DNA of 64,000 bases from NCBI RefSeq assembly GCF_021026335.1, contig NZ_JAJNCY010000005.1, forward strand, positions 62,001 to 126,000, given 5' to 3'. The position numbers and the translations under genes are program-made. Origin of the DNA: Rhizobium sp. C1. GTDB taxonomy: Bacteria; Pseudomonadota; Alphaproteobacteria; Rhizobiales; Rhizobiaceae. The notes under the pieces are model-generated. The model saw nothing but the letters and a program-made list of their open reading frames with translations. It did not search any database and was not told the origin of the DNA. Within the stretch, counting starts at the first letter, position 1, and each line of letters starts with the position of its first letter. Positions 5,164 to 21,772 of this stretch are shown here, in pieces.

Positions 5164-5206
5164 TTTTTGTTGTCCACTGTTTCAGCACCGGCAAGCTTTG
5201 CTCGCG

Positions 5207-6022: not shown

Positions 6023-6592
6023 TCAATAAGATATGTTATGGAACCCGAATATGTGCGTGATTAAAGCTTCGGCCAATTGTTTCAAAAAATAGATGGCCGT
6101 GCCGATCAGCGGGCCCTCTAGGGTTCCTGCACCACCAACGATCACGATGAAGAGAATGCGGATCTGCCAGTCGAGATCGAAGGCTCCGGCAGGTTCGACA
6201 TAGAGGACCGAGGTGTAATAGATCACGCCGGCCACCCCGCAGATGACGGCAGAGGTGACGAAGGCGATGATCCGCGAACGGCCCGGCGCGATGCCGACAC
6301 TGGCCGCCGCCGTCTCGTTGTCACGGATCGCCATCAGCCCCAGGCCGAACCGGGTCCGCAGCAGTCCGAAGATGCCGAATTGCGTCACGAGGACGAGCGC
6401 GAGCGCCGCCCAGAAGACTGCATCCCCGAAGGTCGCGGGATCGATATCCGGCGCGTTGAGCACCATGCCTTGTGCCGATACGTCTCGATCAGATATTCGG
6501 AGCGACGGGCCAAGACCGACATCGAGCCTTCCGTCAGAAGTGTCGGCGGCTCTGACGACAATGCACCCGCCGAGACGATCAATTTCAGGCAT
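6023..6592 (-). pseudogene. Fragment of a branched-chain amino acid ABC permease (LivM-type)
   Basis: The readable part contains LivM family landmarks in order: QGM near the start, SRFGLAL-like TRFGLGLMAIRDNE, a Gly/Ala-rich membrane segment, and VGGAGTLEGPLIGT near the end. A complete LivM has about 330-420 residues. Here the N-terminal membrane helices are missing and the frame stops (FHNISY) before the usual C-terminal helix and APRGLWG-like tail. No other liv genes lie nearby. It is read as a decayed remnant directly behind the alcohol dehydrogenase gene. Confidence 0.7.
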
Positions 6593-6607: not shown

Positions 6608-7732
6608 TCAGAACACCACGACCTGGCGGATTGCCTCACCGGTCGCGAGGCGTTCGAAACCTTCATTGATCTCGTCGAGCGTGATCCGGTGCGTCATCAG
6701 CTTCTCGATCGGCAGCTTGCCGGCCTGCATCATGGCGGCGAAGCGCGGGATGTCGCGCACGGGCACACATGAGCCGACATAGGAGCCTTTGAGCGTCTGT
6801 TCGCCGACCGTGAGAGAGACAGCGGGAATGGTGAACTCGGCCTTCGGATTGGGCAGCCCCCCGGTGACGGTCGTGCCGCCGCGCCGGGTGATCTCGTAGG
6901 CGAATTTCAGCGCGGGCGCTGCGCCTGCCAGCTCCACGGCGAGATCCACACCGCCGCTTGTCAGTGCCTTGACCTCAGCGACAGCACTCTCTTTCGTCGG
7001 ATCGATGGCATGCGTGGCGCCGAGCTCCAGCGCCAGCGCCCGCTTGTGTTCGGCCATGTCGACCGCCACGATCGTCTCGGCGCCTGCCGCGACCGCACCC
7101 AGAAGTCCGGCAAGCCCCACGCCTCCGAGGCCGACGATGGCACAGCTCTGCCCCATCTTCAGCTCACCCGAGTTCAGCACCGCGCCGACGCCCGTGAGCA
7201 CCGCGCAGCCGAGCAGGGCAGCACGATCCAGCGGCACCGACTTGTCGATCTTGATACAGGAATTTTCCGACATGACCGCATGGGTCGAAAATGCGGAGAC
7301 ACCGAGATGGTGGTTCAGCGCCTCACCCTTGTAGCGCAGCCGCCGCTCGCCGCCGAGCAGCGTGCCCTTGCCTGCCGCCACGGCGCCGGGTTCGCACAGC
7401 GCCGGCCGGCCGGAAGCACATGGCACGCAATGGCCACAGGAGGGCACGAAGACGAGAACGACATGGTCTCCCGGCTCGAAACGCGTGACGCCCGGCCCCA
7501 CCGCCTCGATGATACCCGAGGCTTCATGGCCGAGCGCGACCGGCATGTCACGCGGCCGGTCGCCGTTGATCACAGAAAGGTCGGAGTGACAAAGGCCGGC
7601 CGCCGCCATCTTCACCAGCACCTCGCCGAAGCCCGGCTCCTCCAAGTCCGCCTCGACGATCTCGAGCGGCCTCGTGTCCTGATAGGGACGTGCCGTCCCC
7701 ATCGTTCTCAACAGCGCGATTCTGGCTTTCAT
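6608..7732 (-). CDS. Zinc-dependent alcohol dehydrogenase (MDR superfamily)
   Basis: 374 residues. Catalytic zinc ligands lie in LCHSDLS and GHEASG. The structural zinc site C-x2-C-x2-C-x7-C (CGHCVPC...LC) is complete, and the nucleotide-binding turn GLGGVGLAGL is present. It resembles the class III / NAD-linked long-chain alcohol dehydrogenases. The start at 7732 is preferred over 7759 because GGGAAGAG lies just upstream of it. It is the last intact gene of the long minus-strand run, 28 bases after the symporter gene, so it may oxidise an alcohol released from the imported substrate. Confidence 0.88.
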   Translation of the reverse strand: MKARIALLRTMGTARPYQDTRPLEIVEADLEEPGFGEVLVKMAAAGLCHSDLSVINGDRPRDMPVALGHEASGIIEAVGPGVTRFEPGDHVVLVFVPSCGHCVPCASGRPALCEPGAVAAGKGTLLGGERRLRYKGEALNHHLGVSAFSTHAVMSENSCIKIDKSVPLDRAALLGCAVLTGVGAVLNSGELKMGQSCAIVGLGGVGLAGLLGAVAAGAETIVAVDMAEHKRALALELGATHAIDPTKESAVAEVKALTSGGVDLAVELAGAAPALKFAYEITRRGGTTVTGGLPNPKAEFTIPAVSLTVGEQTLKGSYVGSCVPVRDIPRFAAMMQAGKLPIEKLMTHRITLDEINEGFERLATGEAIRQVVVF

Positions 7733-7760
7733 CTCACTCTTCCCTTGATTGTCCTGCATT

Positions 7761-9677
7761 CTAACGATGGCCGAAAGCGAGCGCAGTCACGACGACCAGG
7801 CTCACTGCAACGGCAATGACAATGATGGCGGCGCGGCGGCGGCGCATTTCGGCTTCCGCTTGCCCTCCTCGCAGGCGCGGCCTTGGCACATAGGCCGGGA
7901 CATGAACCAGAGAGGGGCTCGCCAGCTCCATCTTGTAGGCGAGAAACCACACCAATCCCAGACCCGCGACCCACATGGCCAGCGACCAGCCCCAGAGCGA
8001 GGGCATGCCGAGCACCCAGTGGCCATCCGTGCCCAGAAAGGCGTAATTGCCGAAGACGAGGCCCGGGCCAATGGCGAGGAAAACCCAGGCCAGCGTCGCC
8101 GACCATGCTGTCGACCGGAGAGCCCTCACGCGCGCACTTCCTGCAAGCTGGGTGAACAGAAAGCGGCGCGCCTCATCCCCTTCCTCACCAAATCCGCGCT
8201 TCTGCGTGAAGGCCGAGATCAGCAGGGTCACCGCGATATTGGCGGCCATCCCCCAAGCCGCAGAATGAATGGTCCAGGGATTGCGGCCCCACGGCAAATC
8301 GAGCCCGAAGAAGGAGAGGACCGAAATCCCGAAAGGCTCCGTCAGCAGCACACCGGCAATGCCGAAGCCGACGCCTGTCACGGCAGCCGGCCGGGTGATC
8401 CAGCGCAGCCACGTCATCCCCAGCAGCGGCGTAGAGAGCTGGAAGGCAAGTGGCAGGGCAAGGGAGGCCAGCAGCGTCAGCGCGACAGGTGTCAGCAGCT
8501 GCATCAAGACGCTGCCAAGCACAAGAAACCCGATTACGACGCGCGTGAGCGTCACGGTATCGCGCCGGGACAGGCTCGAATGGAAAAACGGCTTATAGAG
8601 ATGGCGCACCAGCGTCTCGCCGGCCGCAAGAAGGGCGACTGCCGCCATGACCTGTACGCCCGCGACAAGCCCAATGAAGATCCAGGCCGCAAACCAGGGC
8701 GAGACGCCGGCCAGTAATCCGGGCAGAGTGCGCGCGGGATCGACCAGCGCGCCGGCACCGACGAGCGCAACACAGAAAACCACGAGAGCACCGGCAACGC
8801 CTGCCACGACCCAGGTCTGCCCTGCCGCAAAGCCACGCGGGCTCGATGTCGAAAGCACCACCTTCATGATCATCGGGCTAGCCTGCAGGCCCATCAGCGC
8901 CATGGCGAAGGAGAGGCTGGCGAGCGCTGTTCCCTCATGGCCCGCCGCCGCCTCCTTGCCGAGGCCGGCAGTGAATTGCACGACGCCTGCCACAATGAAG
9001 CGCGTCGCCGTTGCAGGGTCCTCGGCCAGCTTGGCAAGCCCGGCATTCAACGCAGCAAATCCGCCCGCGGCAATCAGCGCGAAGCCGGCCAGCACAACAA
9101 TCGAGGCCCCAGCCATCACCGACTGGATCGCACCGAGAAAGGCCGCTGCGCGCATGCCGCCGATGACGACATAGGCAAAGAGAATGAGACCGAGCAGCAC
9201 GGACGCCATTTCCATCGAAACCAGGCCGCCGCCCAGTTCTGCGGCGAGCCGCGACAGCGCATGAAGCTGCAGACCAGCGAAGGCCACGGCAAAGAGCACG
9301 GCGACAACGGCCGAAAAGGCGGTCAGGAATTCCGAGCCCCAATAGGCACGCAGCAATTCGGTGAGCGAAGAAACACTGAGCCGCTGGCCGAGCAGCCAGA
9401 CGCGCTTGAAGAAGACGACGCCCGGCAGCGCCAGCGCCACGCCGGCCTGAAGGCTGGCCGCAAGACCAAAGCCATGACGGGCGATTTCATCCGTTCCTGC
9501 CAAAATGGCCCAGCCGGACAGGCTCGCACCGGCGATGACCAGCGCGGAAATCCAAGGTGACAGCCCATGCGCAGCGGAAAAGAAGGTCTGGTAATCGCCA
9601 TTCGCCTGCGCGCTGAGGCGCGCCCAGTAGAGAACGGCGACGGCATAGACGAGCGCGAAAAGCGAAAGCCACATCAT
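7761..9677 (-). CDS. Sodium:solute symporter (SSS family), long form
   Basis: 638 residues and many hydrophobic segments. The SSS hallmark is VVIGGMRAAAFLGAIQSVM in the first third; RRDTVTLTRVV and a later LLTPVALTLLA stretch also match the family fold. The C-terminus adds two extra membrane helices and a basic tail (MRRRRAA then a last helix). The start ATG 9677 overlaps the preceding gene stop (ATGA) and has GGAGGA just upstream, so the longer frame reaching 9995 is spurious. Tight coupling with the small membrane protein suggests the two form one transport unit. The substrate is not recognisable. Confidence 0.85.
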   Translation of the reverse strand: MMWLSLFALVYAVAVLYWARLSAQANGDYQTFFSAAHGLSPWISALVIAGASLSGWAILAGTDEIARHGFGLAASLQAGVALALPGVVFFKRVWLLGQRLSVSSLTELLRAYWGSEFLTAFSAVVAVLFAVAFAGLQLHALSRLAAELGGGLVSMEMASVLLGLILFAYVVIGGMRAAAFLGAIQSVMAGASIVVLAGFALIAAGGFAALNAGLAKLAEDPATATRFIVAGVVQFTAGLGKEAAAGHEGTALASLSFAMALMGLQASPMIMKVVLSTSSPRGFAAGQTWVVAGVAGALVVFCVALVGAGALVDPARTLPGLLAGVSPWFAAWIFIGLVAGVQVMAAVALLAAGETLVRHLYKPFFHSSLSRRDTVTLTRVVIGFLVLGSVLMQLLTPVALTLLASLALPLAFQLSTPLLGMTWLRWITRPAAVTGVGFGIAGVLLTEPFGISVLSFFGLDLPWGRNPWTIHSAAWGMAANIAVTLLISAFTQKRGFGEEGDEARRFLFTQLAGSARVRALRSTAWSATLAWVFLAIGPGLVFGNYAFLGTDGHWVLGMPSLWGWSLAMWVAGLGLVWFLAYKMELASPSLVHVPAYVPRPRLRGGQAEAEMRRRRAAIIVIAVAVSLVVVTALAFGHR

Positions 9678-10102
9678 GCATGCTCCTCCGACCCGTCGCC
9701 CGGTTTGATATGGAAGCGCGAGAAGGCGCCGCGCAGGCCGTGCCGCGTGAACAGATAGGCGAGAAAACCGGCGGCCAGCACCCCGAAGAGCGTGAGGCCG
9801 GAATAGTAGTCGGCCATGGTCATGTCGCCACCGACAGCGGACACCACGAAAATGAGCCCGAGCACTCCATAGGCGCCAATCCCGAGCGCCGCCTCGCCCT
9901 GCGTGAAGCCGGTGTCGAAGATGCCGTTGACGACAATATGCGCGACGAAAGCCAGCACGATCGACAGCACGCCGGCGGCGGAGAGCGCCCACCAATCCGC
10001 CTTCAAGCCCTCCAGGAAAACGCAGAGCCCGAAAAGCCCGAGCACGGCCCAGATCGCGAAGATCAGTATGGAGCGTTCAGTACGGGCGTCAGTCTGGCTC
10101 AT
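9674..10102 (-). CDS. Small four-helix membrane protein coupled to the symporter
   Basis: 142 residues with about four hydrophobic segments (residues ~11-30, 36-58, 68-92, 98-118) and charged termini. I do not recognise a family. Its stop overlaps the symporter start (ATGA), and it follows the flotillin gene by 69 bases, so it may be an accessory subunit of the symporter or a partner of the flotillin. That role is inferred from position only. Confidence 0.75.
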   Translation of the reverse strand: MSQTDARTERSILIFAIWAVLGLFGLCVFLEGLKADWWALSAAGVLSIVLAFVAHIVVNGIFDTGFTQGEAALGIGAYGVLGLIFVVSAVGGDMTMADYYSGLTLFGVLAAGFLAYLFTRHGLRGAFSRFHIKPGDGSEEHA

Positions 10103-10171: not shown

Positions 10172-11842
10172 TCAGTTCGGCCGGCTCTTGTCCTTGGTCG
10201 CGGATGTCGGAGCGGCGGGCTCGGTATAGACGACCTTGGAAAGGTCGCTCAGCGTATGCGGCCGGTGGATCGTCTCGGCCGTCAGGCCGATCTCGCCCAG
10301 CAGCGTGTCGACAAAGGGTGCCTGTGTGCGATAGCGCAGCGCTGAGCTGACCACCTGTTCTGCCAGGTTCCCGTCGCGCGGCGCACCCGCCTCGTCGCCG
10401 GCAACCAGCTGGCCGGATCCGCCGCCGGAAAGGCCCGGAAGCCCTTCCACATGAAGGATCTTGATGCCCTCGATCTTCTCCATCGGCTTGACGCTTTCGC
10501 GGATGATGGCCGGCAGGTTCTCGACCAGCGAGCGGTGCAGCGCGGAGCGGCGGCTGGCATCGGAGCGCATGTTCTCTGCCGCATTGAGCCGTTCCTTGCC
10601 GGCGGCCTCGACCTTCATGCGCTCTTCGAGCGCAGCCACCGCGATCCGGTCGGCATCGGCGCGGTCCTTGGCAGCGGCCTTTTCGGCTTCGGCCAGAATG
10701 CGGATGCGGGCGGCCTCGGCTTCGGCAGCACGTTCGGCCTCGATGCGTTCGATGAGCTTCTGGCGGTTGGCGATCTCGGTATCGCGGATCGTCATCACCT
10801 TCTCCTGCGCCTCGATCATCGCGGCGCGCGCCTTCTCGGCCTCGGCCTGCGCCTCCGAGCGCTCCTTGGACTTCAGCGAGACGGCGATTTCGCGCGCCTG
10901 TTCCTCGATCTGGATCGTTTCGCGGCGACGGATTTCCAGGCGCTCGACTTCGCGTTCCATGTCGATGCGGCTGCGCTCGACGGCTTCGCGTTCCTTGAGC
11001 TTCACGGCTTCGATCTCGCGTTCGCGCTGGGCGTTCTCGGCGGCAATCTCGGATTTCTTGGAGGCGCGCTCGATGGCGACCTGAGCCTCGTGCGAAAGCC
11101 GTGCATATTCGCTGTCGCGTTCGATCTCGAGGCTGCGCTTTTCGGCTTCGAGGTTCTTGGCGCGGATGGCGATCGCCGTATCCTTCTCGATATCGTTGCG
11201 CTTCTTCTTGCGGCTCTCGATCTGCTCGGTCAGGTGTGTCAGGCCTTCGGCGTCGAACGTGTTCGAGGGATCGAAGAGCTTGATGTCGGTCTGGTCGAGC
11301 GAGGTGAGCGACACGGATTCCAGTTCGAGACCGTCGAGCGCGAGGCTTTCGGCCACTTCCTGCTTCACTTCCCTGACGAAGGCCTGACGGTTTTCGTGGA
11401 TGAATTCGAGCGTCATCTTGGCCGCAGCGCCACCCATGGCGTCGACGAAGCGACCCTGGATCAGGTCCTTGAGCTGCTCGGCATTCATGGTGCGGTTGCC
11501 GAGGCTGCGGGCGGCGGTTGCCACCGCATCCGTATTCGGCGCAACGCGGACATAGAACTCGACGGTGAGTTCGACGCGCATGCGATCCTTGGTGATCAGC
11601 GACTTTTCCCGTGCGCGGGTCACCTCCAGACGCAGCGTATTCATGTTGACCTCGGTGAGGTCATGCAGGATCGGCAGCACCAGCGCGCCGCCGCCCATGA
11701 CGACCTTCTCGCCGCCGAAGCCGGTCCGCACGAAGCTGACGTCTTTGGTGGAGCGGCGATAGAGCCAGTGCAGAAGATAGGCGGCGACAGCAATGACGAT
11801 AGCCGCCAGGATGATAATGGCAATGACGTCTGCACCCTTCAT
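10172..11842 (-). CDS. Flotillin / SPFH-domain membrane scaffold protein (YqiK-like)
   Basis: 556 residues. A single N-terminal membrane segment (residues ~5-25) is followed by an SPFH/band-7 domain (VRTGFGGEKVVMGGGALVLP through about residue 200). A long Glu/Arg/Ala-rich coiled coil runs from about residue 215 to 430, then a Gly/Ser-containing C-terminal region. This is the flotillin architecture: such proteins oligomerise under the membrane and organise lipid-rich microdomains. It lies 48 bases after the rhodopsin-like gene, in the same transcription direction. It probably recruits or clusters the neighbouring membrane proteins; that partner role is inferred. Confidence 0.9.
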   Translation of the reverse strand: MKGADVIAIIILAAIVIAVAAYLLHWLYRRSTKDVSFVRTGFGGEKVVMGGGALVLPILHDLTEVNMNTLRLEVTRAREKSLITKDRMRVELTVEFYVRVAPNTDAVATAARSLGNRTMNAEQLKDLIQGRFVDAMGGAAAKMTLEFIHENRQAFVREVKQEVAESLALDGLELESVSLTSLDQTDIKLFDPSNTFDAEGLTHLTEQIESRKKKRNDIEKDTAIAIRAKNLEAEKRSLEIERDSEYARLSHEAQVAIERASKKSEIAAENAQREREIEAVKLKEREAVERSRIDMEREVERLEIRRRETIQIEEQAREIAVSLKSKERSEAQAEAEKARAAMIEAQEKVMTIRDTEIANRQKLIERIEAERAAEAEAARIRILAEAEKAAAKDRADADRIAVAALEERMKVEAAGKERLNAAENMRSDASRRSALHRSLVENLPAIIRESVKPMEKIEGIKILHVEGLPGLSGGGSGQLVAGDEAGAPRDGNLAEQVVSSALRYRTQAPFVDTLLGEIGLTAETIHRPHTLSDLSKVVYTEPAAPTSATKDKSRPN

Positions 11843-11890: not shown

Positions 11891-12598
11891 TCAGGCACCG
11901 GCCTTCTCCTCCGAAGCAAGGATGGCGGTCGAAAGAACGGCGATGCCGAAGGCCATGCGGTTGAGGATATCGGCGACGTTATAGGCAACCGAGAGGCTGC
12001 CATCGTCGGTCATGCCGGCAAAGGCAGTGAGGAAATTGCCGAGCGGATAGATCGCCCAGCCGATGGTGACGATCAGCCGGAGCCAGAAATAGCCGCGCCG
12101 AAGCGTATCGCCGGTGGAGGCGCGCACCACATCGTCCATGCGGCCGAAATAGAACTCGCCGAGCAGATAGAGCCAGAAGACGAGGCCGATGAGGAAGGCG
12201 AGTGTGGGATGCATGAAGGCTGCTTCGCCGAGATAGCGCACGAAGACCATCAGCACCGAGACGACGATCAGTCGCCAGAATAGGCCAGCCGACAGCTTGC
12301 CCGCCGTGCCGGCAAGGAAAAAGAGTGCCATCACCTGCAGCGGCATGGACACGGCCCAGCCGACATAGTGATAGACGACGGGCACGCCCTGCCCGGCGAA
12401 CCAGGCCTCGCGCGCCTCGTGAACCGAACCCACGCCGACCAGCGCCGCAATGGCACAAAGGGCGACGGGAAGCCGCCATGACCGGCTGACCCAGGCCGTC
12501 CCGATCAGGAGAAGCACCGTGGTTGCGGCAAGGCCGAACAGGTCGGCGGAAAAGCTCGCAGCAGTGAGGTCGGTTGTCTGATAGACCGCCATTGTCAT
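11891..12598 (-). CDS. Proteorhodopsin-fold protein lacking the retinal-binding lysine
   Basis: 235 residues with seven hydrophobic helices. Helix F has GWAIYPLGNF (proteorhodopsin GWAIYPVGYF), and helix G has YNVADILNRMAFG (proteorhodopsin YNLADFVNKILFG). At the Schiff-base lysine position there is Arg214, codon CGC at 11957-11959. Helix C reads YHYVGWAVSMPLQVMALFF: by alignment the counterion Asp is Gly80, the Thr is Ser84 and the proton-donor Glu is Ala91. The helix B His (His60) and helix G Asp (Asp210) are kept. The frame is intact, so the protein is probably made but cannot hold retinal by the usual bond. An AAGGAGG site precedes ATG 12598; ATG 12592 is an alternative with better spacing. 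It sits between ABC permease and flotillin genes. No retinal or carotenoid gene is in the window. Role unknown. Confidence 0.85.
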   Translation of the reverse strand: MTMAVYQTTDLTAASFSADLFGLAATTVLLLIGTAWVSRSWRLPVALCAIAALVGVGSVHEAREAWFAGQGVPVVYHYVGWAVSMPLQVMALFFLAGTAGKLSAGLFWRLIVVSVLMVFVRYLGEAAFMHPTLAFLIGLVFWLYLLGEFYFGRMDDVVRASTGDTLRRGYFWLRLIVTIGWAIYPLGNFLTAFAGMTDDGSLSVAYNVADILNRMAFGIAVLSTAILASEEKAGA

Positions 12599-12640: not shown

Positions 12641-14002
12641 TCAGATCTGCGTGCGGATATGCGGCGAGCGTGCATAGAGCGCCACCATGGGAAGGATGAG
12701 CAGGCCAAAGATGAACTGCTGCCATTTGAAATCGAGGCCGATGCCGACCAGGAAGCTCGAGAGAACCTGAAGCACGAGCACGCCGATGACCGTGAAGCCA
12801 TAGCCGCCCGCGCCGCCGAGGAGCGACGTGCCGCCCACGACCACCGCCGCCAGCGTCAGGAAGAGATATTGATCGCCGACCCCGATGAAGCCGCCGCCGG
12901 ACCAGCCGAGCAGCAGGCCGCCGGTCAGCGCGGCAAAGAAGCCCGAGAGCGCATACATGATGACCCAGTAGCGCATCTCGGAAATCATCACGCGGCTCGC
13001 CGAAGTGCGGTTGACGCCGAGCGCATAGAGGTAGCGACCATAGACCGTGGTGCGCAGCCCGACGATCAGGATCAGCGCGATCAACGCCCAGACGAGGATG
13101 ACCGGCGGGAATGGCAGGCCAAAGGTCGTGCCGTTCATGGCCGAGATATTGGCAAGCCACGGCGGCACGGTGCCGAACACGTTGCCGGAATAGGCCGAAC
13201 CGATGGAGGTGACGATCTGAACGCCGCCCGAGATGGCAAAGCCCGTGCCGAGTGTCACGATCAGCGCCTGCCCCTGCAGGCGATAGCTGAGCAACCCGTT
13301 GATGACGCCGAAGATCGTGCCGATCAGCAGCACGATGATCGTGGCGAGCCATGGGGGAACGCCGAGGCCGATCAGGTAGAGCAGGCCGACATTCGCCCCG
13401 CCGATGATGAAGGGGATGGAGAGATCGAGCCCACCCAGCAGCGCCACCAGCGTCTGGCCGATGGAGGCAATGCCGAGGAAGGAGGCGAAAAGCAGCATGG
13501 ACTTGATGTTGTTGCCCGAGGCAAAGCCCTCGATATTCATCGAGCCGACGGAGAAGAGGCCAGCCAGAACCATGATGCCGATGAAGGCGGAGCGGTTCTG
13601 CTGGAACTGCCGTCCGAGCGTGCGCGTCAGTACGAGAATGGCGAGCAGAATGATAAGCGAGAGCACATTCCAGATATTGAAGAAGCGGGGGATCGTCAGC
13701 GACAGCAAGAGGAAAGCCGCCAGCACCAGCGCCAGCCCGATCAGCGGCCAGCGATATTGCAACCACGCCAGGCGCAGCGGGCTTGGCCCGTCGGCGACGA
13801 TTGTCTCCGTCTCCACGAACTGGCCGATGACATAGCGCCAGGCCCAGACGGTGAGCGCCAGCGTTGCGATGGCCGACAGGATGACGACCTGCACCGCCAT
13901 GCCTTGCGCGAAGCCGAAGCCTGCGCCGAGACCCGCGAGCAGAATGGCGATGACGAGGCCGAGAATGCGGGCCGGAAGGCCGATCTGTGGCAGCTTTTCC
14001 AT
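12641..14002 (-). CDS. ABC transporter permease, ribose/sugar type (second permease)
   Basis: 453 residues, a BPD_transp_2-type permease. Family landmarks include LLGGLDLSIPFIIGGAN, VTLGTGFAISGG and GGTSLLGGAGGYGFTVIG. It is longer than the usual 320-350 residues because of an N-terminal part with about three extra hydrophobic segments. ATG 14002 shares one base with the upstream permease stop (TGATG), so the 17 extra upstream codons are rejected. It forms the membrane channel with the other permease. The rhodopsin-like gene follows after 42 bases. Confidence 0.88.
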   Translation of the reverse strand: MEKLPQIGLPARILGLVIAILLAGLGAGFGFAQGMAVQVVILSAIATLALTVWAWRYVIGQFVETETIVADGPSPLRLAWLQYRWPLIGLALVLAAFLLLSLTIPRFFNIWNVLSLIILLAILVLTRTLGRQFQQNRSAFIGIMVLAGLFSVGSMNIEGFASGNNIKSMLLFASFLGIASIGQTLVALLGGLDLSIPFIIGGANVGLLYLIGLGVPPWLATIIVLLIGTIFGVINGLLSYRLQGQALIVTLGTGFAISGGVQIVTSIGSAYSGNVFGTVPPWLANISAMNGTTFGLPFPPVILVWALIALILIVGLRTTVYGRYLYALGVNRTSASRVMISEMRYWVIMYALSGFFAALTGGLLLGWSGGGFIGVGDQYLFLTLAAVVVGGTSLLGGAGGYGFTVIGVLVLQVLSSFLVGIGLDFKWQQFIFGLLILPMVALYARSPHIRTQI

Positions 14003-15405
14003 CAGCGAACGACCTCCGTCGCGGGCGCGATGCCGCCTTCGTGCATGACCCATGCGCCACCGAGAACGAGTGCCGTCACCACCACCGCCACTGCCGGGCC
14101 CAAGCTGCGCCGGCTCGCCTGCGCGAAGGCCAGCCGCAGGAAGACGGCAAGGACCGCGAGAAGGATGGTGAAGAAGACGAAGGGCATGGCCTCAGCCCTG
14201 AGCGCCAGCGTCTCAGGCGTCAGAGTTGCGATCTCCAGCGGCTTCGTCAGCGCAGCCTGGATGTCCATCGGGCCTGGCATATAGGCGGGCGCCTCGCCGA
14301 GGCTCGTGTAGTCGAACGTGGCATGCAGCGCGATGCCGAAGACGACGACGCCCAGCGACACGAAGTAGAGCAGCGGCGAGAAGTTGCGGATATGGCGCTG
14401 GATGACCGGGATGAGCAGTGTCAGCAGCAGCGAAATGACAAGGATCGCGCCATAGGCCAGGTTCGTCACGAAGCTCTGCACCGAGCCGAAGTTGAAGCTC
14501 GAGAGGACGAAGGTGATCATGTAGAGGTTGAGCGCGCCGAGCGCCGAGCCGAAGACGCCGCCCCGGCCACCAGCGAGCGACGCGCCGCCGAGCACCAGCG
14601 CCGTCACCGCGATCAGCGTGTAGGTCGTGCCCTGCGACGGGTCGCCCGAGGAAATGAGTGCCGTGAAGCAGATCGAGGCAAGCCCGGCAAAGCAGCCGGA
14701 AATCAGATGCGCACCGATGCGCACGATAGTGATCGGAACGCCGGATGTGTAGGCCGCGCGCTCGTCCGAGCCCATCAGACGCAGATGGGTGTAAAAGGCC
14801 GTCGCCGTAAACAGCAGCCAGGCGACCGTCGCCAGAACCAGAATGATCAGCACCGGCGAAAAGATCGACGTGCCGTACCCCCATTCGGCCATGAAGGGCG
14901 GAGCAACCCCGCCGGGGCGTGGCAGAATGACGAGATTGATGCCCGACAGCGCCAGATAGCCGGAGAGTGACACGATGATCGGCTGCACGCGCACATAGAT
15001 GACGATCAACGCGAAAATGAACTGATAGGCCGCGCCCACCGCCATGCAATAGAGAAAGACGGGGATCGGGTTTTCCAGCGCGCCGGCCGCATGAAGCTGG
15101 ATCATGGTCACGTTGATGAAGCCGATTAGTGGCCCCACGGAGAGATCGACCGTACCGCGGCCGGCGATGGTCGAAGCCATCAGCGTATAGGTCGCAAGGA
15201 TCAGCGGCGTGACGACGATGATCGCTGCGCCAATGCCCGAAGCGGTCATGAGGCTCGGTGTGCGCAGCACCGCGATCGAGAGCAGCGCGAAGAACAGCGT
15301 GATCGGCATCAGCAGGAACGGATTGGAGCGCCCGCCCTGCTCGGCCACCTTCGCGGCGACCGGCTCGGAACCCGAGGTCTCCCGAGGCATAACCGGAAGG
15401 CTCAT
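14002..15405 (-). CDS. ABC transporter permease, ribose/sugar type (first permease)
   Basis: 467 residues, same superfamily as the next gene. Landmarks are IAGRGTVDLSVGPLIGFIN, VRVQPIIVSLSGYLALSG and GGASLAGGRGGVFGSALGA. Extra C-terminal hydrophobic segments make it unusually long. The start at 15405 overlaps the ATPase stop (ATGA). Two non-identical permeases imply a heterodimeric channel, unlike the homodimer typical of ribose importers. Confidence 0.88.
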   Translation of the reverse strand: MSLPVMPRETSGSEPVAAKVAEQGGRSNPFLLMPITLFFALLSIAVLRTPSLMTASGIGAAIIVVTPLILATYTLMASTIAGRGTVDLSVGPLIGFINVTMIQLHAAGALENPIPVFLYCMAVGAAYQFIFALIVIYVRVQPIIVSLSGYLALSGINLVILPRPGGVAPPFMAEWGYGTSIFSPVLIILVLATVAWLLFTATAFYTHLRLMGSDERAAYTSGVPITIVRIGAHLISGCFAGLASICFTALISSGDPSQGTTYTLIAVTALVLGGASLAGGRGGVFGSALGALNLYMITFVLSSFNFGSVQSFVTNLAYGAILVISLLLTLLIPVIQRHIRNFSPLLYFVSLGVVVFGIALHATFDYTSLGEAPAYMPGPMDIQAALTKPLEIATLTPETLALRAEAMPFVFFTILLAVLAVFLRLAFAQASRRSLGPAVAVVVTALVLGGAWVMHEGGIAPATEVVR

Positions 15406-17261
15406 GGCTGCCCTCCTTCGATGCGCGCACCGTTTTCGCCGAATTCGACGATGCGGATAGGCTTGACCGTCGGCGTGGCTTTCGGACGCGAAGTCGGCAG
15501 ATCTGCAGCAAACCGCTCCGCCGGAACCAGATGCGCGCTCCCGGCATCGACAGGCGCGGGAGAGGCAGGTTTGGGCTTGACTGCGGCGGGAACCTCGACG
15601 CGCACCCGCGGGCCGTCGCTTTGCACAGCGAAGGCTCCGGCGGATGCGCCAGCGGCGTTCGGTGCGCCGGGACGCAGTCCGTAAGCCGCCGTCAGACCTT
15701 CGCCACCCGTCTGGCCGAACATAGCTTCCAGCACACGCTTCGGCTCCAGGCTGCGTCCGTCGAAGGCATCGAAGGGCGCGCCGTCGCGGAAGACGATCAC
15801 GCGGGTGGCAAAGCCCAGGAATTCCTCGATTTCGGAAGAGAGATAGATCACCGCCCTGCCCTCTTCGGCATAGGCGCGCAAATGCCGGTAAAGCTCGGTC
15901 TTGGCGCCGACATCGATGCCGCGGGCCGGATCGTTGAGGATGATCACGTCGGGGCGCATGGCAAAGCCGCGTCCGATCAGCACCTTCTGCTGGTTCCCGC
16001 CGGAGAGCGACGTGATGCGGTCTTCCTTGACGCCGAACTTGATCAGCAGGTTCTCCGCCTCGCGCTTGAACAGCGTCGAAAGCGTGCCCCGATCGATGAA
16101 GCCGAGAATGCCGCCGCGCTTCTTCTCGCGATAAAGTGGCATGACCATGTTTTCGAAGATGGAGAGCGAGGCGAAGATGCCCTCGCGCTTGCGGTCGCCG
16201 GAGACATAGGCCACCTTGTTCGCCACGGCCTCCGGCAGGTTGCGCACGGGCTGCCAACTTCCGTCGCGGGAAGCGACCTGCACAAGTCCCTGCGATGCGC
16301 CCATGACGCCAGCCAGAACGCGCACGAAGGCGTCCTGCCCCTGCCCGTCCAGGCCTGCAATGCCGACAACTTCGCCCCGGCGCAGATCGAAATCGAATGG
16401 CTTCGAATTCGGCCAGACGGCAAGCTTCCTCGCCTTCATCGCCCGCTCGGGCGTCTTAGGCTGCGGAGCTTCGGCATTTGAATGGCCAGCCGAGCGGTCC
16501 TCACCGGTCATAAGGCGCAGAAGGTTCTTTTCGGTGATATCTTCCTTTTCCAGGACACCCACATCGCGGCCGTCGCGGAAGACCGTCGCACGGTCGGAAA
16601 TGCGTACCAGTTCGGCGATACGATGCGTGACGATCAGGATCGTCGTGCCGCGATCGCGCAGCGCTCGCATCCGGGCAAACAGCCGCTCGGTGGAGTCGAA
16701 ATCGAGCGCGGCGGAGCTTTCATCGAGGATCAGAATGCGTGGCTCGGAGAGGAGCGCGCGGGCAATTGTGATCCACTGCTTCAGGCCCAGTGGCAGCGTA
16801 CCGACCAGCGCATGCGGATCGACGGGCTCGCCGGAAAGTTCCTCCATCAGCTCGGCGGCGCGCGCCACCTTGCGATCCTGCGACAGCGTCTTGGAAAAGA
16901 GCCGGTCCGAGCCCATGAAGATGTTGTCGACGACTGAGCTTTCGTCGGCCACAAGCACTTCCTGATAGACGGTGGAAATACCGAGCGCCCGGCTTTCGGC
17001 CGGCGTGGAGGGGGTTTCGCCGAGAATGGAAACCGTACCGCTATCGACCGGCAGGACACCGGAGACCACCTTCGCCATCGTCGACTTGCCGCAGCCGTTG
17101 CCGCCGACAATGGCGTGGATCTCGCCCGCCCGTGCCGAAAAGGATGCCCCGTCGAGCGCCCGGGTTGGCCCGAAATACTTTTTCACACCACGCACCAGGA
17201 TTGTCTCCCGGCCGGCAGGCTGTGCGATCTCTGGAGCTGTGGACGACATGAGACTACCCAT
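15402..17261 (-). CDS. Sugar-type ABC transporter ATPase with two nucleotide-binding domains and a C-terminal extension
   Basis: 619 residues. Domain 1 has Walker A GGNGCGKST and Walker B ILILDESSAALD with a weak signature (LGLKQ). Domain 2 has the degenerate Walker A usual for this family (GIAGLDGQGQD), a canonical LSGGNQQK signature and VIILNDPARGIDVG. From about residue 515 there is an unusual Pro/Ala-rich extension of roughly 104 residues, ending in a motif (IRIVEFGENGARIE, residues ~602-615) that resembles the first residues of the lactonase-like protein encoded upstream. An alternative start is ATG 17249. It energises the importer formed with the two following permeases. Confidence 0.9.
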   Translation of the reverse strand: MGSLMSSTAPEIAQPAGRETILVRGVKKYFGPTRALDGASFSARAGEIHAIVGGNGCGKSTMAKVVSGVLPVDSGTVSILGETPSTPAESRALGISTVYQEVLVADESSVVDNIFMGSDRLFSKTLSQDRKVARAAELMEELSGEPVDPHALVGTLPLGLKQWITIARALLSEPRILILDESSAALDFDSTERLFARMRALRDRGTTILIVTHRIAELVRISDRATVFRDGRDVGVLEKEDITEKNLLRLMTGEDRSAGHSNAEAPQPKTPERAMKARKLAVWPNSKPFDFDLRRGEVVGIAGLDGQGQDAFVRVLAGVMGASQGLVQVASRDGSWQPVRNLPEAVANKVAYVSGDRKREGIFASLSIFENMVMPLYREKKRGGILGFIDRGTLSTLFKREAENLLIKFGVKEDRITSLSGGNQQKVLIGRGFAMRPDVIILNDPARGIDVGAKTELYRHLRAYAEEGRAVIYLSSEIEEFLGFATRVIVFRDGAPFDAFDGRSLEPKRVLEAMFGQTGGEGLTAAYGLRPGAPNAAGASAGAFAVQSDGPRVRVEVPAAVKPKPASPAPVDAGSAHLVPAERFAADLPTSRPKATPTVKPIRIVEFGENGARIEGGQP

Positions 17262-17359: not shown

Positions 17360-18529
17360 TTACTTCTTCTTGAAGGCGCGCGGATCGGCCGGGCGCAGGA
17401 AGAAGTTGTCGAGATAGGCCGAGTTGTAACCCCAACGGTCGGCACCGACCTTCAGCCATTCGGCGCTGTTGAGGTTGCAGTTCTCGTCCATGACCTTGGT
17501 CAGATCATCATAGGTGAGCTTCACCGGATCGACGAGGATCGACTGGATCTTCGGGCCCTGGCCTTCCAGCGTGCGCATCATGATGTGCCACATCAGCTCG
17601 ATATCGTCGGCCGGCGGCCAGAGCTGATAGGAGGCGTTGATGTATTTGGGGTTCTTGCGCCAGTAGCAGAGCGCACCCAGCTCACCGCCGATGGCAACCG
17701 GGATTTCGCCGCGGCCTGCCTGCTGGACGGCGCGCAACACGCCCATTTCGGCCGCCGACTGCACGACGATGCCGTCGAGCTTGCCCGGATTGGTGGCAAG
17801 CCACTTCTGCACTTCGCCCTGAGCGACCTGGTCGGTCCACATGCCGGCGACAGAGCCGACAACCTTGATATCCGGCGCGGACTTGAGACCTGCGAGAACC
17901 CCGCGGTTCTGGCTGTCGGAGCCGGACGTACCGGGAATGCCTTCGACGACGAGGACATTGCCCTTGCCGCCAAGCTGGTCGGCCATGGCCTTGCCGATCT
18001 CATAGCCGCCGACCTGATAGTTGACCGACGAGTTGATGGCATATTCCGAGGTCAGGTAACCGGTCATCGAGAAGACCGGAACGCCCTTGTCGGCCGCGTA
18101 TTTCACCGATGCGTTGAGCGCGGTGGGGTTGGAGCAGCAGAGAATGATCGCGTCCGCGCCCTGGTCGACGAGCTGGCGGATCTGCTGGATCTGGGTGGAA
18201 TCATTGAGGTTCGACTGGGTAACAACGACGTCGGAAATCAGACCGAGTTTCTTCCATTCCGGCACGATGACCTTCTGCAGCTCGTCCATCGCGGCGGCGC
18301 GCCAGGTGTTGCCGGCGTAGGACGAGGCATAGCCGATCTTCCACGGCGGGCCCTTCTTCGGCTTGAAGTCACGCCACTTGCTCGGCCCGATCGGCTGCAT
18401 CGGATCGAGCATGTCCTTGTTGTAAAGGCGTTTAGCGACGTCCGGGTTGATCTCGTCCACGCCGGCGGCGAAGACGGCGCTTGCGGAGACGGCCACGAAG
18501 GCCGCTGCGCATACCAATTTGCGTAACAT
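17360..18529 (-). CDS. Periplasmic sugar-type substrate-binding protein (type 1 fold)
   Basis: 389 residues. It has a Sec signal peptide (RKLVCAAAFVAVSASAVFAA, cleavage near residue 22). The body is a periplasmic-binding-protein type 1 fold: KIGYASSYAGNTWR, then QLVDQGADAIILCCSNP, GGYEIGKAMADQLGGKG and GVLAGL. It is the capture component for the importer that follows. The family includes ribose, xylose and autoinducer-2 binders, but the pocket residues do not tell me the ligand. It is followed by an mRNA-protecting hairpin. Confidence 0.9.
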   Translation of the reverse strand: MLRKLVCAAAFVAVSASAVFAAGVDEINPDVAKRLYNKDMLDPMQPIGPSKWRDFKPKKGPPWKIGYASSYAGNTWRAAAMDELQKVIVPEWKKLGLISDVVVTQSNLNDSTQIQQIRQLVDQGADAIILCCSNPTALNASVKYAADKGVPVFSMTGYLTSEYAINSSVNYQVGGYEIGKAMADQLGGKGNVLVVEGIPGTSGSDSQNRGVLAGLKSAPDIKVVGSVAGMWTDQVAQGEVQKWLATNPGKLDGIVVQSAAEMGVLRAVQQAGRGEIPVAIGGELGALCYWRKNPKYINASYQLWPPADDIELMWHIMMRTLEGQGPKIQSILVDPVKLTYDDLTKVMDENCNLNSAEWLKVGADRWGYNSAYLDNFFLRPADPRAFKKK

Positions 18530-18573: not shown

Positions 18574-19509
18574 TCAGTCATAAAAATCCTGCGGGGATTT
18601 GCGGAAGCTCGGCCATGTGACCGGGTCATGGCCTGTGACGACCATCGCATTCGTGTCCTTCGCGATGCGCCTGAGCTTGGTGACGGAATCGGCCGCCTGC
18701 ATCGAAGACGTGACAAGACCGGGTAGCGCCCGGTTTTCCCAGTGATCGACCGTATAAGCGGCATCGATCGTCAACAGGATCGGCCCGCTCTCGGGCAGCG
18801 TGATCAGGAAGGATTGATGTCCGGGCGAATGGCCAGGCGTGAAGATCATCCGCACTGTACCGTCGCCGAACAGATCGAAATTGTCGGTGAACTCGCCGCC
18901 GAGGAACTTCCAGTTGAGACCCGGACGGTCGAAATCGGCGCGGATATAAGCGCCGGCGGAAAACCAGTGCGGCTTGAAGGCATATTCATATTCGCTGCGC
19001 TGAACGATATGCTGCGCCTTGGGAAACCGCCCGATGGCGCCGGTATGGTCGAGATGCAGGTGCGACTGCACGACATAGCGCACATCCTGCGCGCTCACGC
19101 CGACCATCTTCAGCTGATCGACGCAGTTTTCCGAGACCGGCATGACCGGGTCGTAGGCGTCCACGACCGCGCCCCAATGACCGCGCTTGTCGATAGCCGC
19201 CTCGACCGCGTTGCCGCCATCGATGACGACATTGCCTTGCGGATGCTTGATCAGGAACCACGGCACGGGGATTTCGAAATCCCCCTCGCCTTGGTTCATC
19301 TTGATATATTTCGTCTTCGTCCTCAGCGTTCCGGTCTGGAACATATGCAATTCGATCCCCGAAGACTTGCGCCTCGTGCGCGGCGCGTCCTTCGGGGCCG
19401 GGGAGTAATTCGGGCGCGGGGCCAGCGAAGACGCGTTGCCGGATCGTGCAGGCGCGTTCGCGTCGCTCTCGATACGCCGGCCCTTGTCGTCGAATTCAAT
19501 GATCTTCAT
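18574..19509 (-). CDS. Metallo-beta-lactamase-fold hydrolase, N-acyl homoserine lactonase-like
   Basis: 311 residues. The dinuclear zinc motif HxHxDH is intact (SHLHLDHTG; H150, H152, D154, H155). Further ligands appear in TPGHSPGH, LTIDAAYT and VTGHDPVTW, the arrangement of the AiiA/AttM lactonase group. The reaction is probably opening of a lactone or ester ring. An N-terminal extension of about 50 residues precedes the domain and is Pro/Ser/Ala-rich; it begins with KIIEFDDKGRRIE, which resembles the C-terminal motif of the ATPase encoded downstream. It lies 44 bases before the binding protein gene in the same direction. Confidence 0.85.
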   Translation of the reverse strand: MKIIEFDDKGRRIESDANAPARSGNASSLAPRPNYSPAPKDAPRTRRKSSGIELHMFQTGTLRTKTKYIKMNQGEGDFEIPVPWFLIKHPQGNVVIDGGNAVEAAIDKRGHWGAVVDAYDPVMPVSENCVDQLKMVGVSAQDVRYVVQSHLHLDHTGAIGRFPKAQHIVQRSEYEYAFKPHWFSAGAYIRADFDRPGLNWKFLGGEFTDNFDLFGDGTVRMIFTPGHSPGHQSFLITLPESGPILLTIDAAYTVDHWENRALPGLVTSSMQAADSVTKLRRIAKDTNAMVVTGHDPVTWPSFRKSPQDFYD

Positions 19510-19532: not shown

Positions 19533-20381
19533 TCAGGTCCGCGCTTCGATCAGGCGAAGCGCTTCTTTCAGATAGACCGCGAACAGCGGGTAGTTCTCCG
19601 ACATCGGGAAATGCCCGATATCCTCCATCTCGATATAGATGCCACCGGGGATCTGGCGTGCCGTGTTCTCGGTGGCCTCGGGCGGCGTCAGATAGTCGTA
19701 AGTGCCGGTCATCATGATCACCGGGCAGCGGCGTGTATCGATATTGCCGAGCTTGCCGCGCAGGTCGTGATCAATCGAGTAGAAGAACAGGTCGCCCTTG
19801 AAGGCTTCGGAGCCTTGCGTGTAGTAGTGCCAGGTCAGCCAGCGATCCATGTCGGGGCTTTGCGGAGCCATGAGGTCCCACACGCCGCTCGCGCAGACCT
19901 GCGCCGCATTGGCATGCGGGTGACGCCACCAGTCGAGATAGAAGCCCGGCGCATGTTCCGCCGCCTCGACGGGGATGACGGCCCGGAACTTGTCGGGATG
20001 ATGCAAAGCCAGCTGCAGCGCGACATTGCCGCCGAAACTCGACCCCATGAAGATCGGTCGGTCGAGTTCCAGTGCGTCGCACAGCGTGACGATGAAGTTC
20101 ATGTAGTGCTGGGCCGTCAGCACATATTCTTCCTTCCACCACTCCTTGTTGAGCGGTGGGTCGGACTTGCCGTGGCGCGCCAGGTCATAGGCGATCACAT
20201 CATAACGCTGCGTGATGGTTTCGTCTTCGAGCAGCCCGCGCCACTGGTGGTTGTGGCAGCCTGCCGTGTGCTGGCAGACCAGCGGAATGCCGCTGCCGTT
20301 GCGCAGGTAGAAGACCTTGTATTCGAAGCCGTCCACCTCGATGGTGACGTAGCGTCCGATAACGGGAGAGTGCTTGGCCAT
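19533..20381 (-). CDS. Alpha/beta hydrolase
   Basis: 282 residues. The nucleophile elbow is GSSFGG (about residue 116), the oxyanion region is QHTAGCHNHQWRG, the acid lies near TGTYDYLTPP and the catalytic His is in DIGHFPMSE. Esterase, lactonase and C-C hydrolase activities are all possible. It lies 23 bases before the lactonase-like gene, suggesting successive hydrolytic steps on one compound. No signal peptide is seen, so it is cytoplasmic. Confidence 0.85.
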   Translation of the reverse strand: MAKHSPVIGRYVTIEVDGFEYKVFYLRNGSGIPLVCQHTAGCHNHQWRGLLEDETITQRYDVIAYDLARHGKSDPPLNKEWWKEEYVLTAQHYMNFIVTLCDALELDRPIFMGSSFGGNVALQLALHHPDKFRAVIPVEAAEHAPGFYLDWWRHPHANAAQVCASGVWDLMAPQSPDMDRWLTWHYYTQGSEAFKGDLFFYSIDHDLRGKLGNIDTRRCPVIMMTGTYDYLTPPEATENTARQIPGGIYIEMEDIGHFPMSENYPLFAVYLKEALRLIEART

Positions 20382-20965: not shown

Positions 20966-21772
20966 ATGAACGTGAGGGAATCCAAGACGCAGCAGTCGCC
21001 GGCGCTGGAGCGCGGCGCTCGCATTCTCGATGTTGTCGCGCGCTCGAAGACGTTCCTGAGCCTGTCCGATCTGTCGCGGGAGTTGAAGATCGCCCGCTCC
21101 AGCATCCACTCTCTTTGCCAAACGCTCGTCAATCTAGAGCTTCTAATCCGGCGTAACGATCAGACCTTCCAGCTGGGTCCGCATGTCATGCGCTGGTCGA
21201 ACGCCTTCACGCTCCAGTCCGATGTCGCGACCGAGTTCGCGGCCATATGGGATCAGGAGACCGGCCTTCCCGGCGCGACGATCACGCTGACCGTTCAGGA
21301 CGGGGCAGAGGTTGTTTACATTGCCGCGCGTAACGCCGCCCTTAGCCGCTCGGCGCTGGAGTTCCGCGTCGGCATGCGGCTGCCGGCCGCCTTCACCGCC
21401 ACCGGCAAGGCGTTTCTGAGCCACATGCACGACCATGAAATCCGCCGGCTCTACGCACACGGCCTGCCGGAGGCACGCACCAGCCGCAGCGTTCGCTCGC
21501 TGGACGATCTTCTGGCGGAGCTCAGGGCCATCAGGCTCCAGGGCTACAGCTGCGATGAGGAGCAGGTGGCCGAAGGCATGGTGTGCTTCGGAGCGACGGT
21601 GCTCGATGCCCAGAACCATCCCATCGCCGGCGTGGCCGTGAGTCTGACACTGGACGCAGAAGCCATGAACAACCGCGACACCGTCATCGGCAACGTAAAG
21701 CAGATGGCCGCCCGCCTCTCTCACCGCATGGGTGCAGACATTCCGCAAGGCAGCCGGATGCGCGGTGCCTGA
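20966..21772 (+). CDS. IclR-family transcriptional regulator
   Basis: 268 residues. The N-terminal winged helix is typical (ALERGARILDVVA, then LSDLSRELKIARSSIHSLCQTL). The effector domain follows (MRLPAAFTATGKAFLSHM and FGATVLDAQNHPIAGVAVSLTLD). Being divergent from the minus-strand transport and hydrolase run, it is the best candidate for its regulator. It is closely related to the second IclR protein encoded at 22785-23555. Confidence 0.9.
   Translation: MNVRESKTQQSPALERGARILDVVARSKTFLSLSDLSRELKIARSSIHSLCQTLVNLELLIRRNDQTFQLGPHVMRWSNAFTLQSDVATEFAAIWDQETGLPGATITLTVQDGAEVVYIAARNAALSRSALEFRVGMRLPAAFTATGKAFLSHMHDHEIRRLYAHGLPEARTSRSVRSLDDLLAELRAIRLQGYSCDEEQVAEGMVCFGATVLDAQNHPIAGVAVSLTLDAEAMNNRDTVIGNVKQMAARLSHRMGADIPQGSRMRGA

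What the first reader, a model, noticed from the sequence alone, without database searches (positions are those of the whole stretch)
11891..12598. Rhodopsin-fold protein without the retinal lysine, next to a flotillin
Seen directly: seven helices with clear proteorhodopsin signatures in helices F (GWAIYPLG) and G (YNVADILN), but Arg214 replaces the Schiff-base lysine. In helix C the counterion, Thr and donor Glu positions are Gly80, Ser84 and Ala91. The frame is intact and the fold residues are kept, so this looks like a maintained protein with a changed job, not decay. Known: flotillin-associated rhodopsins have been described from marine plankton as divergent proteorhodopsin relatives. Inference: this may be a blind, non-pumping member that works as a membrane sensor, ligand-binding or scaffold-partner protein in a soil bacterium.
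Basis: partly seen in the sequence, partly recalled or inferred. Interest (0 to 1): 0.92.

Follow-up and report, generated by a model that had tools for sequence, protein, structure and literature searches.

The report
Blind rhodopsin in an importer operon
A light-sensor-type membrane protein that has lost the site for holding its light-absorbing pigment is kept by many bacteria as part of a nutrient-uptake gene cluster, so it has probably been reused for a job that needs no light.

Summary
In detail: window 11891-12598 (-) encodes an intact rhodopsin-fold protein with Arg at the retinal-lysine site, beside a flotillin. It is a flotillin-associated rhodopsin (FAR), a family published in 2023; Lys-less freshwater members, Arg included, were already reported. 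Added here: (1) 51 distinct FARs form one clade; 44 form one Lys-less clade, so Lys was most simply lost once, the site becoming Arg, Leu, Gln or Glu. (2) All 44 carry Arg121 where proteorhodopsins have Gly, by position at the ring end of retinal: a second likely bar. (3) The 19 sampled Rhizobiaceae genomes with it show no other type-1 rhodopsin, no Blh and no full-length lycopene cyclase; 3 genomes with Lys rhodopsins have both enzymes. (4) Selection is purifying (dN/dS 0.02-0.16). (5) A ribose-type ABC importer is as constant a neighbour as flotillin: the order SBP-ATPase-permease-permease-FAR-flotillin holds in 46 of 51 loci; 3 are cut by contig ends, 2 have SBP/ATPase reversed. Its second permease has an N-terminal extension seen only with FAR in the genomes surveyed. 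Best reading: a retinal-independent subunit or chaperone of a flotillin-organised importer, often with lactone-type (BlcR/AttM-like) genes. Biochemistry untested; substrate unknown.

The parts
11891..12598 (-). FAR: Lys-less flotillin-associated rhodopsin, 235 aa; Arg214 codon at 11957-11959, Arg121 codon at 12236-12238
10172..11842 (-). FLOT: flotillin, 556 aa, N-terminal membrane segment, SPFH and Flot domains
   Evidence: beside FAR in 51 of 51 distinct loci, which were chosen by having it
12641..14002 (-). PERM1: CUT2 (ribose-type) permease with an N-terminal extension of about 126 aa; the ORF can start at 14053, orthologues start at the equivalent of 14002
   Evidence: BPD_transp_2; extension in FAR-linked copies only, in the genomes surveyed; hydropathy; weak model
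14002..15405 (-). PERM2: second CUT2 permease with a C-terminal extension of about 140 aa
   Evidence: BPD_transp_2 84-324 of 467 aa; hydropathy
15402..17261 (-). ABC: CUT2 sugar-type double-ATPase
17360..18529 (-). SBP: periplasmic binding protein, Peripla_BP_4
18574..19509 (-). AttM/BlcC-like metallo-lactonase with HLHLDH metal motif
   Evidence: NCBIfam NF045700 435.6 bits over cut-off 390; PDB 9kho E 7.2e-110; motif
19533..20381 (-). ABH: alpha/beta hydrolase with GSSFG motif, 80-83% identical in the 7 Lys-bearing FAR loci
20966..21772 (+). Divergent IclR regulator, BlcR-like
   Evidence: PDB 3mq0 (blcABC repressor) E 4.4e-52
9674..10102 (-). 4TM: small membrane protein, 142 aa, no family match above chance
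7761..9677 (-). SSF: sodium:solute symporter-like protein, 638 aa
   Evidence: a relative lies in 51 of 51 distinct loci, divergent and upstream in 5 of them
6608..7759 (-). Zn alcohol dehydrogenase at the operon end, only in a minority of loci
   Evidence: 8 of 43 other Lys-less loci

Best explanation
The gene encodes a retinal-independent flotillin-associated rhodopsin. Shown: it has the rhodopsin fold by homology and model; the Schiff-base Lys, counterion and donor are gone; an Arg replaces a Gly at a site that by position lies at the ring end of the pocket; the host shows no other type-1 rhodopsin and no retinal-forming enzymes; the gene is under purifying selection; it lies in an operon-like run with a CUT2-type ABC importer, a flotillin, a symporter-like protein and a hydrolase, conserved over several orders. 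Inferred: the seven-helix bundle serves as a membrane-embedded subunit, chaperone or anchor that holds the importer (perhaps through the extra N-terminal helices of PERM1) inside a flotillin domain, much as the retinal-less opsin-related proteins of yeast are said to serve the plasma-membrane H+-ATPase. The BlcR/AttM-like genes point to uptake and opening of lactone- or ester-like compounds. Likelihoods: blindness about 0.93; functional part of the importer system about 0.6; lactone-type substrate about 0.4.
For: Alignment and residue tables. One FAR clade 100/99, one Lys-less clade 100/100. One PF01036 match each in the 19 Rhizobiaceae genomes with a Lys-less FAR; Blh 0 of 19 against 3 of 3; full-length lycopene cyclase 0 of 19 against 3 of 3 at about 310 bits. 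Operon: FAR, FLOT, PERM1 and SSF in 51 of 51; PERM2 50, ABC 49, SBP 48, ABH 48, the gaps all in L043, L052, L053, which reach a contig end; the core order on one strand holds in 46 of 51. Long-form PERM1 in exactly the 19 FAR genomes of 297 and the 6 of 385 (extension of three checked). dN/dS 0.021-0.163. Regulator and lactonase likeness. PDB 9r23 is a double mutant of the FAR PsFAR at the two sites that align with window residues 85 and 121. Yeast precedent: PMC7714340, passages.
Against: No experiment shows contact between FAR and importer. Linkage, and the high distance correlation (FAR-PERM1 0.96), also follow from joint inheritance of an operon. FAR diverges faster than the importer: 36-43% against 55-62% for PERM1 between the window and the loci of the Leu subclade. 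The PERM1 surveys scored only the best 4-5 candidates per genome, so a long form without FAR could be missed. The PERM1 model is weak (pLDDT 68.3; no confident PDB match), so its extra helices rest mainly on hydropathy. AttM and IclR were not recognised in the Leu subclade, so the lactone hint does not cover all loci. In the two HIMB59-like loci SBP and ATPase point the other way. Three genomes keep Lys in FAR yet lack Blh, so Lys does not track the retinal pathway everywhere.
Confidence: 0.58

Rival explanations
1. Ligand receptor: the former retinal pocket now binds a non-covalent carboxylate or lipid, held by Arg214 near the kept Asp210, and this state regulates the importer or flotillin.
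For: Pocket residues are kept: Trp81, Trp181, Pro185 in 44 of 44, Tyr184 in 43, Asp210 in 42 with Glu in 2. Retinal-free proteoopsin binds decanoate, its carboxylate pairing with the retinal Lys (PMC11322631 section 8; PDB 8cnk is rank 3). The operon would make carboxylates if the lactonase acts as its family does.
Against: 14 of 44 Lys-less FARs have Leu at 214, and one each Gln and Glu, which could not pair with a carboxylate. Arg121 should shorten the pocket. No transducer or signalling gene was seen to be constant in the operon.
Confidence: 0.22
2. Light-related helper: FAR pairs with a proton-pumping proteorhodopsin and tunes it, as proposed for marine FARs.
For: Marine FAR genomes also carry a pump (PMC10308929); here the two HIMB59-like genomes G555 and G633 have two rhodopsins and Blh.
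Against: The window's genome and the 18 other Rhizobiaceae genomes with a Lys-less FAR show no second type-1 rhodopsin and no Blh; the same holds for three Lys-bearing FAR genomes. Heliorhodopsin was found in 0 of 27 genomes, but that search had no positive control.
Confidence: 0.04
3. Passenger: FAR is a useless relic carried along with a useful importer operon.
For: It has lost its only known chemistry, and it changes faster than importer and hydrolase.
Against: dN/dS 0.021-0.163, like its partners; an uninterrupted frame matching at least 217 of 235 residues in 51 of 51 distinct loci, spread over several orders; 44 of 44 Lys-less FARs share Arg121 and Trp172, which none of 15 proteorhodopsins compared has.
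Confidence: 0.06
4. General flotillin-raft organiser that has no specific business with the ABC importer.
For: Flotillin is next to it in all 51 loci (by selection), and flotillins organise membrane domains (established knowledge).
Against: The importer permease is as constant as the flotillin, and only FAR-linked PERM1 carried the extra N-terminal segment in the surveys. Most flotillin-bearing genomes have no such operon: Flot in 61 of 385 genomes (53 over the cut-off), long-form PERM1 in 6.
Confidence: 0.1

Closest known systems
Flotillin-associated rhodopsins (FArhodopsins), marine and freshwater (PMC10308929; PDB 9r21, 9r23)
   Same: Flotillin next door, best PDB hit, and one clade with HIMB59-like loci whose cluster has the published content (permease, symporter, alpha/beta hydrolase, LamB/YcsF, biotin carboxylase, DMFA2). 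Lys-less freshwater members with Gln, Thr, Leu or Arg were reported there.
   Different: Here in Rhizobiaceae and relatives including named isolates, with no second rhodopsin and no retinal enzymes found, Arg121 in all 44 Lys-less members, and an importer link that the paper mentions only as 'an inner membrane translocator'. The sequences of that paper itself were not compared.
Rh-noK rhodopsins beside proteorhodopsin (Yamauchi 2019, known here only through PMC10308929 and PMC7714340)
   Same: Microbial rhodopsin without the retinal Lys.
   Different: Some of those lie in tandem with a working rhodopsin and retinal genes; in this genome neither was found.
Yeast opsin-related proteins (ORPs; passages in PMC7714340; the names Hsp30, Mrh1, Yro2 are recalled)
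   Same: Retinal-less rhodopsin fold, said to regulate the plasma-membrane H+-ATPase or act as chaperone.
   Different: Fungal; no flotillin or ABC importer link known to me. Likeness of role is only proposed.
Agrobacterium blc (attKLM) lactone operon (operon make-up recalled)
   Same: BlcR-like IclR repressor and AttM/BlcC-like lactonase.
   Different: An ABC importer, flotillin and FAR are added; no aldehyde dehydrogenase was among the neighbouring genes scanned.

Membership tests
Flotillin-associated rhodopsin (FArhodopsin) | Type-1 rhodopsin fold and sequence | tested here: met
Flotillin-associated rhodopsin (FArhodopsin) | Clade of its own beside proteorhodopsins | tested here: met
   51 FARs one clade, 100/99; 15 proteorhodopsins and 4 other rhodopsins outside (which warns of long branches for L003 and L004)
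Flotillin-associated rhodopsin (FArhodopsin) | Flotillin gene adjacent on the same strand | tested here: met
   48 nt apart; flotillin domains
Flotillin-associated rhodopsin (FArhodopsin) | DTE motif changed | tested here: met
   Gly80, Ser84, Ala91
Flotillin-associated rhodopsin (FArhodopsin) | A bona fide proton-pumping rhodopsin elsewhere in the genome (stated for marine members only) | tested here: not met
   single PF01036 match in the genome
Flotillin-associated rhodopsin (FArhodopsin) | Retinal Lys present (marine members only; most freshwater ones lack it) | tested here: not met
   Arg214; same as part of the freshwater subgroup
Proton-pumping proteorhodopsin | Schiff-base Lys, Asp counterion, Glu donor | tested here: not met
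   R214, G80, A91; the 77 loci without a flotillin in the stretch fetched have K, D, E in 77 of 77
Rh-noK type | Tandem with a functional rhodopsin and retinal genes | tested here: not met
CUT2 ABC importer (operon, not FAR itself) | Binding protein, double ATPase, BPD_transp_2 permeases | tested here: met
Yeast ORP-like transporter chaperone (works like) | Physical or functional effect on a transport ATPase | not testable with these tools
   only gene linkage and the PERM1 extension were seen

The most novel reading that the evidence does not exclude
A rhodopsin fold has been captured as a dedicated accessory subunit of an ABC importer: Arg214 and Arg121 rebuilt the retinal pocket into a site for a carboxylate made or imported by the same operon, so that FAR senses substrate and switches the importer, docked through extra permease helices, inside a flotillin domain. 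This would be a chemically gated, light-independent bacterial rhodopsin.
Probability: 0.2. Interest if true: 0.88.

Novelty: new variant of a known kind. Interest (0 to 1): 0.62.

Why it matters
The role of flotillin-associated rhodopsins is open; the proposal favoured in PMC10308929 ties them to light and a partner pump. A clade in bacteria where neither a pump nor retinal enzymes are found separates the two ideas and shows that the family's constant company includes an ABC importer. It points to named isolates that carry close relatives (Rhizobium terricola, Pararhizobium antarcticum, Metarhizobium album) in which the question can be tested by ordinary gene deletion, and it adds a bacterial case to the retinal-free opsins with a suggested role.

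Tried and rejected
Decay or pseudogene: rejected by uninterrupted frames and dN/dS. Helper of a pump: rejected for this genome. Retinal from a cryptic pathway: Blh absent. Environmental retinal cannot be excluded by genomes, but Arg214 cannot form the Schiff base. Heliorhodopsin: 0 of 27, without a positive control, hence inconclusive. SSF as a sensor-kinase fusion: no kinase domain in P0004. PERM1 structure comparison gave nothing confident. Distance correlation between FAR and partners says nothing about contact, since operon genes share history. VIA-align was not available.

Literature searches (all 10 allowed): the FAR terms brought up only PMC10308929 and PMC10308909; rhodopsin + flotillin + lysine + Rhizobi gave 0 papers; PsFAR + rhodopsin gave 0; 3 of the 4 terms rhodopsin, blcABC, ABC transporter, flotillin gave only PMC10308909; one search gave 0. 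Only open-licence papers are held, so a paper behind PDB 9r21-9r23 may exist. Seen of papers: PMC10308929 abstract, whole Results and Discussion, and passages; PMC10308909 passages; PMC7714340 passages; PMC11322631 abstract, passages and section 8.

Rows dropped before counts: 57 flotillin-linked FAR loci became 51 distinct by leaving out 5 exact duplicates (L044, L049, L051, L061, L067) and L151, the short copy of L154. Flotillin linkage of the 51 is by selection. The check from the other side: 48 loci and 29 without flotillin in the fetched stretch are all canonical D80/E91/K214/G121 rhodopsins; many of these stretches are short (about 1.5 kb a side for the 29). Only 15 of these 77 went into the tree. 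One search kept the best 80 of 594 relatives, so rarer FAR types may be missing. Rhodopsin matches at G671:C1:303285, G315, G447 and the sub-cut-off one of G543 were not examined, nor the short-form PERM1 of G543. dN/dS used 5 orthologue pairs; SSF values use an over-long ORF start in some pairs. Three negative spacings (L031, L058, L070) also come from over-long ORF starts.

Full report
What is there. The window's minus strand holds a 235-aa ORF at 11891-12598. Pfam calls it Bac_rhodopsin at 8.1e-19. Its best solved relatives are 9r21 and 9r23, a flotillin-associated rhodopsin (E 1.7e-36 and 2.6e-36), ahead of proteorhodopsins. The printed alignments place Arg214 on the retinal Lys of 9r21, 9r22, 4jq6 and 2l6x, and Arg121 on Glu120 of 9r21, on Gly in 9r23 and on Gly in proteorhodopsin 2l6x. 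AlphaFold gives seven long helices at pLDDT 89.5 and Foldseek ranks 9r21 first with TM 0.92.

Family and evolution. The family survey found PF01036 in 22 of 297 genomes of the host's family. Of these, 15 genomes carry Arg and 4 Leu at the site, and 3 genomes carry 4 Lys rhodopsins of other kinds. A scan of named genomes kept the best 80 of 594 relatives: 32 with a flotillin neighbour, 48 without. With five loci from a class-wide survey (PF01036 in 36 of 385 genomes) there are 51 distinct flotillin-linked FARs. They form one clade with support 100/99 (the program warns of long branches for L003 and L004, which lie outside). Inside it, 44 without Lys form one clade at 100/100; the 7 that keep Lys (two HIMB59-like by motif, cluster content and second rhodopsin; five near Rhodospirillales records) group with weak support (87/29). 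The most economical reading is one loss, followed by change of the free position: Arg 28, Leu 14, Gln 1, Glu 1 of 44. The Tistlia copy (L058) still has Asp80 and Thr84 although its Lys is gone, so it may show an early stage.

Two locks against retinal. Residue 121 is Arg in 44 of 44 Lys-less FARs, Ala or Gly in 7 of 7 Lys FARs and Gly in 15 of 15 proteorhodopsins compared. By position (recalled bacteriorhodopsin numbering, Gly122) this lies at the ring end of retinal; PMC11322631 (passages) names L136 of proteorhodopsin, one helix turn away by my numbering offset, as flanking the ring. PDB 9r23 is titled the double mutant H84V/E120G of PsFAR: its two changed sites align with window residues 85 and 121. 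I found no paper on these structures, so the purpose of that mutant is not known to me. Kept pocket residues include Trp81, Trp181, Pro185 (44 of 44), Tyr184 (43) and Asp210 (42, Glu in 2), so the pocket is altered rather than erased. Coordinates of the model were not at hand, so no cavity was measured.

No light system in the host. The window's own genome (4.53 Mb, 99.69% complete) has this one type-1 rhodopsin only. In the 19 genomes of the family with a Lys-less FAR the Blh/Brp family is found in 0 of 19, against 3 of 3 genomes with Lys rhodopsins. Full-length lycopene cyclase shows the same split (the profile also gives weak background in all 22 genomes and in 10 of 14 controls). Three Lys-bearing FAR genomes also lack Blh and a second type-1 rhodopsin, while the two HIMB59-like ones have both. 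Blindness may therefore be older than the loss of Lys. Heliorhodopsin rang in 0 of 27 genomes, without a positive control.

The operon. On the minus strand the order is alpha/beta hydrolase, AttM-like lactonase, binding protein, double ATPase, PERM2, PERM1, FAR, flotillin, 4TM, symporter-like SSF, alcohol dehydrogenase, with a divergent IclR gene. Among the 51 distinct loci FAR, FLOT, PERM1 and SSF occur in 51, PERM2 in 50, ABC in 49, SBP in 48 and ABH in 48; every gap in these is in L043, L052 or L053, whose contigs end there. The core order SBP-ABC-PERM2-PERM1-FAR-FLOT on one strand holds in 46 of 51; of the other five, three are those cut by contig ends and two (L152, L153, HIMB59-like) have SBP and ATPase upstream but reversed. 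Hydrolase, lactonase, regulator and SSF move about: 24 loci have the window's arrangement from IclR to SSF, 13 have the hydrolase between ATPase and PERM2 without AttM or IclR recognised, and 5 have a divergent SSF upstream. 4TM was not recognised in 9 of 51, including all 7 Lys loci. The published marine description lists an 'inner membrane translocator', a sodium symporter and alpha/beta hydrolases and calls many genes membrane transporters, but does not single out an importer.

A structural mark in the importer. Ordinary relatives of PERM1 in the family survey align only from residue 144-159 onwards (14 of 14 matches, 42-60% identity), whereas the 19 FAR-linked copies align from residue 1-31. 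In 385 class-wide genomes the long form occurs in the 6 FAR genomes, with one short-form match elsewhere (in three of the six that search aligned from residue 97-99 only, and the extension was seen in the separate comparison). Both surveys scored only the best 4-5 candidates per genome and used strict E-value limits. Hydropathy shows about four extra membrane segments there, and a low-confidence model agrees. This segment is a candidate docking site for FAR, by inference only.

Selection. Pairwise dN/dS for FAR against five relatives is 0.021, 0.076, 0.163, 0.106 and 0.119, in the range of the other operon genes (0.015-0.216). A frame matching at least 217 of 235 residues without a stop is present in 51 of 51 distinct loci. 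G+C of FAR (0.63) is close to that of the window (0.622). Within the genus the operon is accessory: 3 of the 6 members listed carry a rhodopsin match.

What it probably does. Fact ends at: a conserved opsin without the retinal Lys in an importer-flotillin operon. The best inference is a light-independent membrane subunit, chaperone or anchor for the importer. Retinal-less opsins of yeast are reported to regulate the plasma-membrane H+-ATPase and to act as chaperone (PMC7714340, passages). The ligand-receptor rival rests on proteoopsin binding decanoate through the retinal Lys (PMC11322631 section 8) and on the retained positive charge in 28 of 44, but Leu, Gln or Glu in 16 of 44 speaks against it as a general rule. 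The IclR likeness to the blcABC repressor (E 4.4e-52) and the AttM-family lactonase (over its curated cut-off) suggest lactone-type substrates where these genes are present; the Pfam and NCBIfam scans do not name the importer's substrate.

Novelty. FARs, flotillin linkage and Lys loss with Arg among the variants are published. Not met in the papers and searches named above: FARs in Rhizobiaceae and other non-plankton hosts with named isolates, the absence of pump and retinal enzymes beside a FAR, Arg121 in all Lys-less members, the single Lys-less clade, the constant ABC importer with its special permease, and the BlcR/AttM context. The supplementary tables of PMC10308929 were not seen and may hold parts of this.

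Noticed in passing
window 19533-20381; L152:12187-13050: The operon's alpha/beta hydrolase is 80-83% identical between the window and all 7 Lys-FAR loci (two HIMB59-like), more than any other partner; no named family above its cut-off in the NCBIfam scan and only one PDB hit below 1e-10 (5egn, E 1.4e-13). Its substrate may be the key to the operon.
   Followed up: partly
L154-L156 (G481, G575, G653): FARs that keep the retinal Lys in genomes with no Blh and no other type-1 rhodopsin: a Lys without a detected retinal source.
   Followed up: partly
window 6023-6592: 189-aa ORF matching only the second half of a branched-chain-type permease (BPD_transp_2 positions 128-241); perhaps a leftover of a lost transporter.
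   Followed up: no
window 14002-15405; L152, L072, L154: PERM2 has a C-terminal extension; in Lys-FAR loci the PERM2 ORF is 757-801 aa, about twice the length of a normal permease.
   Followed up: partly
L060:15111-15500, L152:11772-12161 and same-size ORFs in L072, L086, L154: A 129-aa ORF just before the hydrolase gene, no Pfam match in the two tested; possibly the gene that PMC10308929 calls a sterol-carrier protein.
   Followed up: partly
window 24-3148: Genes that look like an EfeO/EfeB-type iron uptake set (from the translation, recalled likeness, not scanned).
   Followed up: no
window 3510-5159 and 5198-5851: GMC oxidoreductase with a divergent TetR regulator beyond the operon end.
   Followed up: no
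G671:C1:303285-303992 (class survey): A genome with two rhodopsins, the second one with a weaker score; not examined for flotillin.
   Followed up: no
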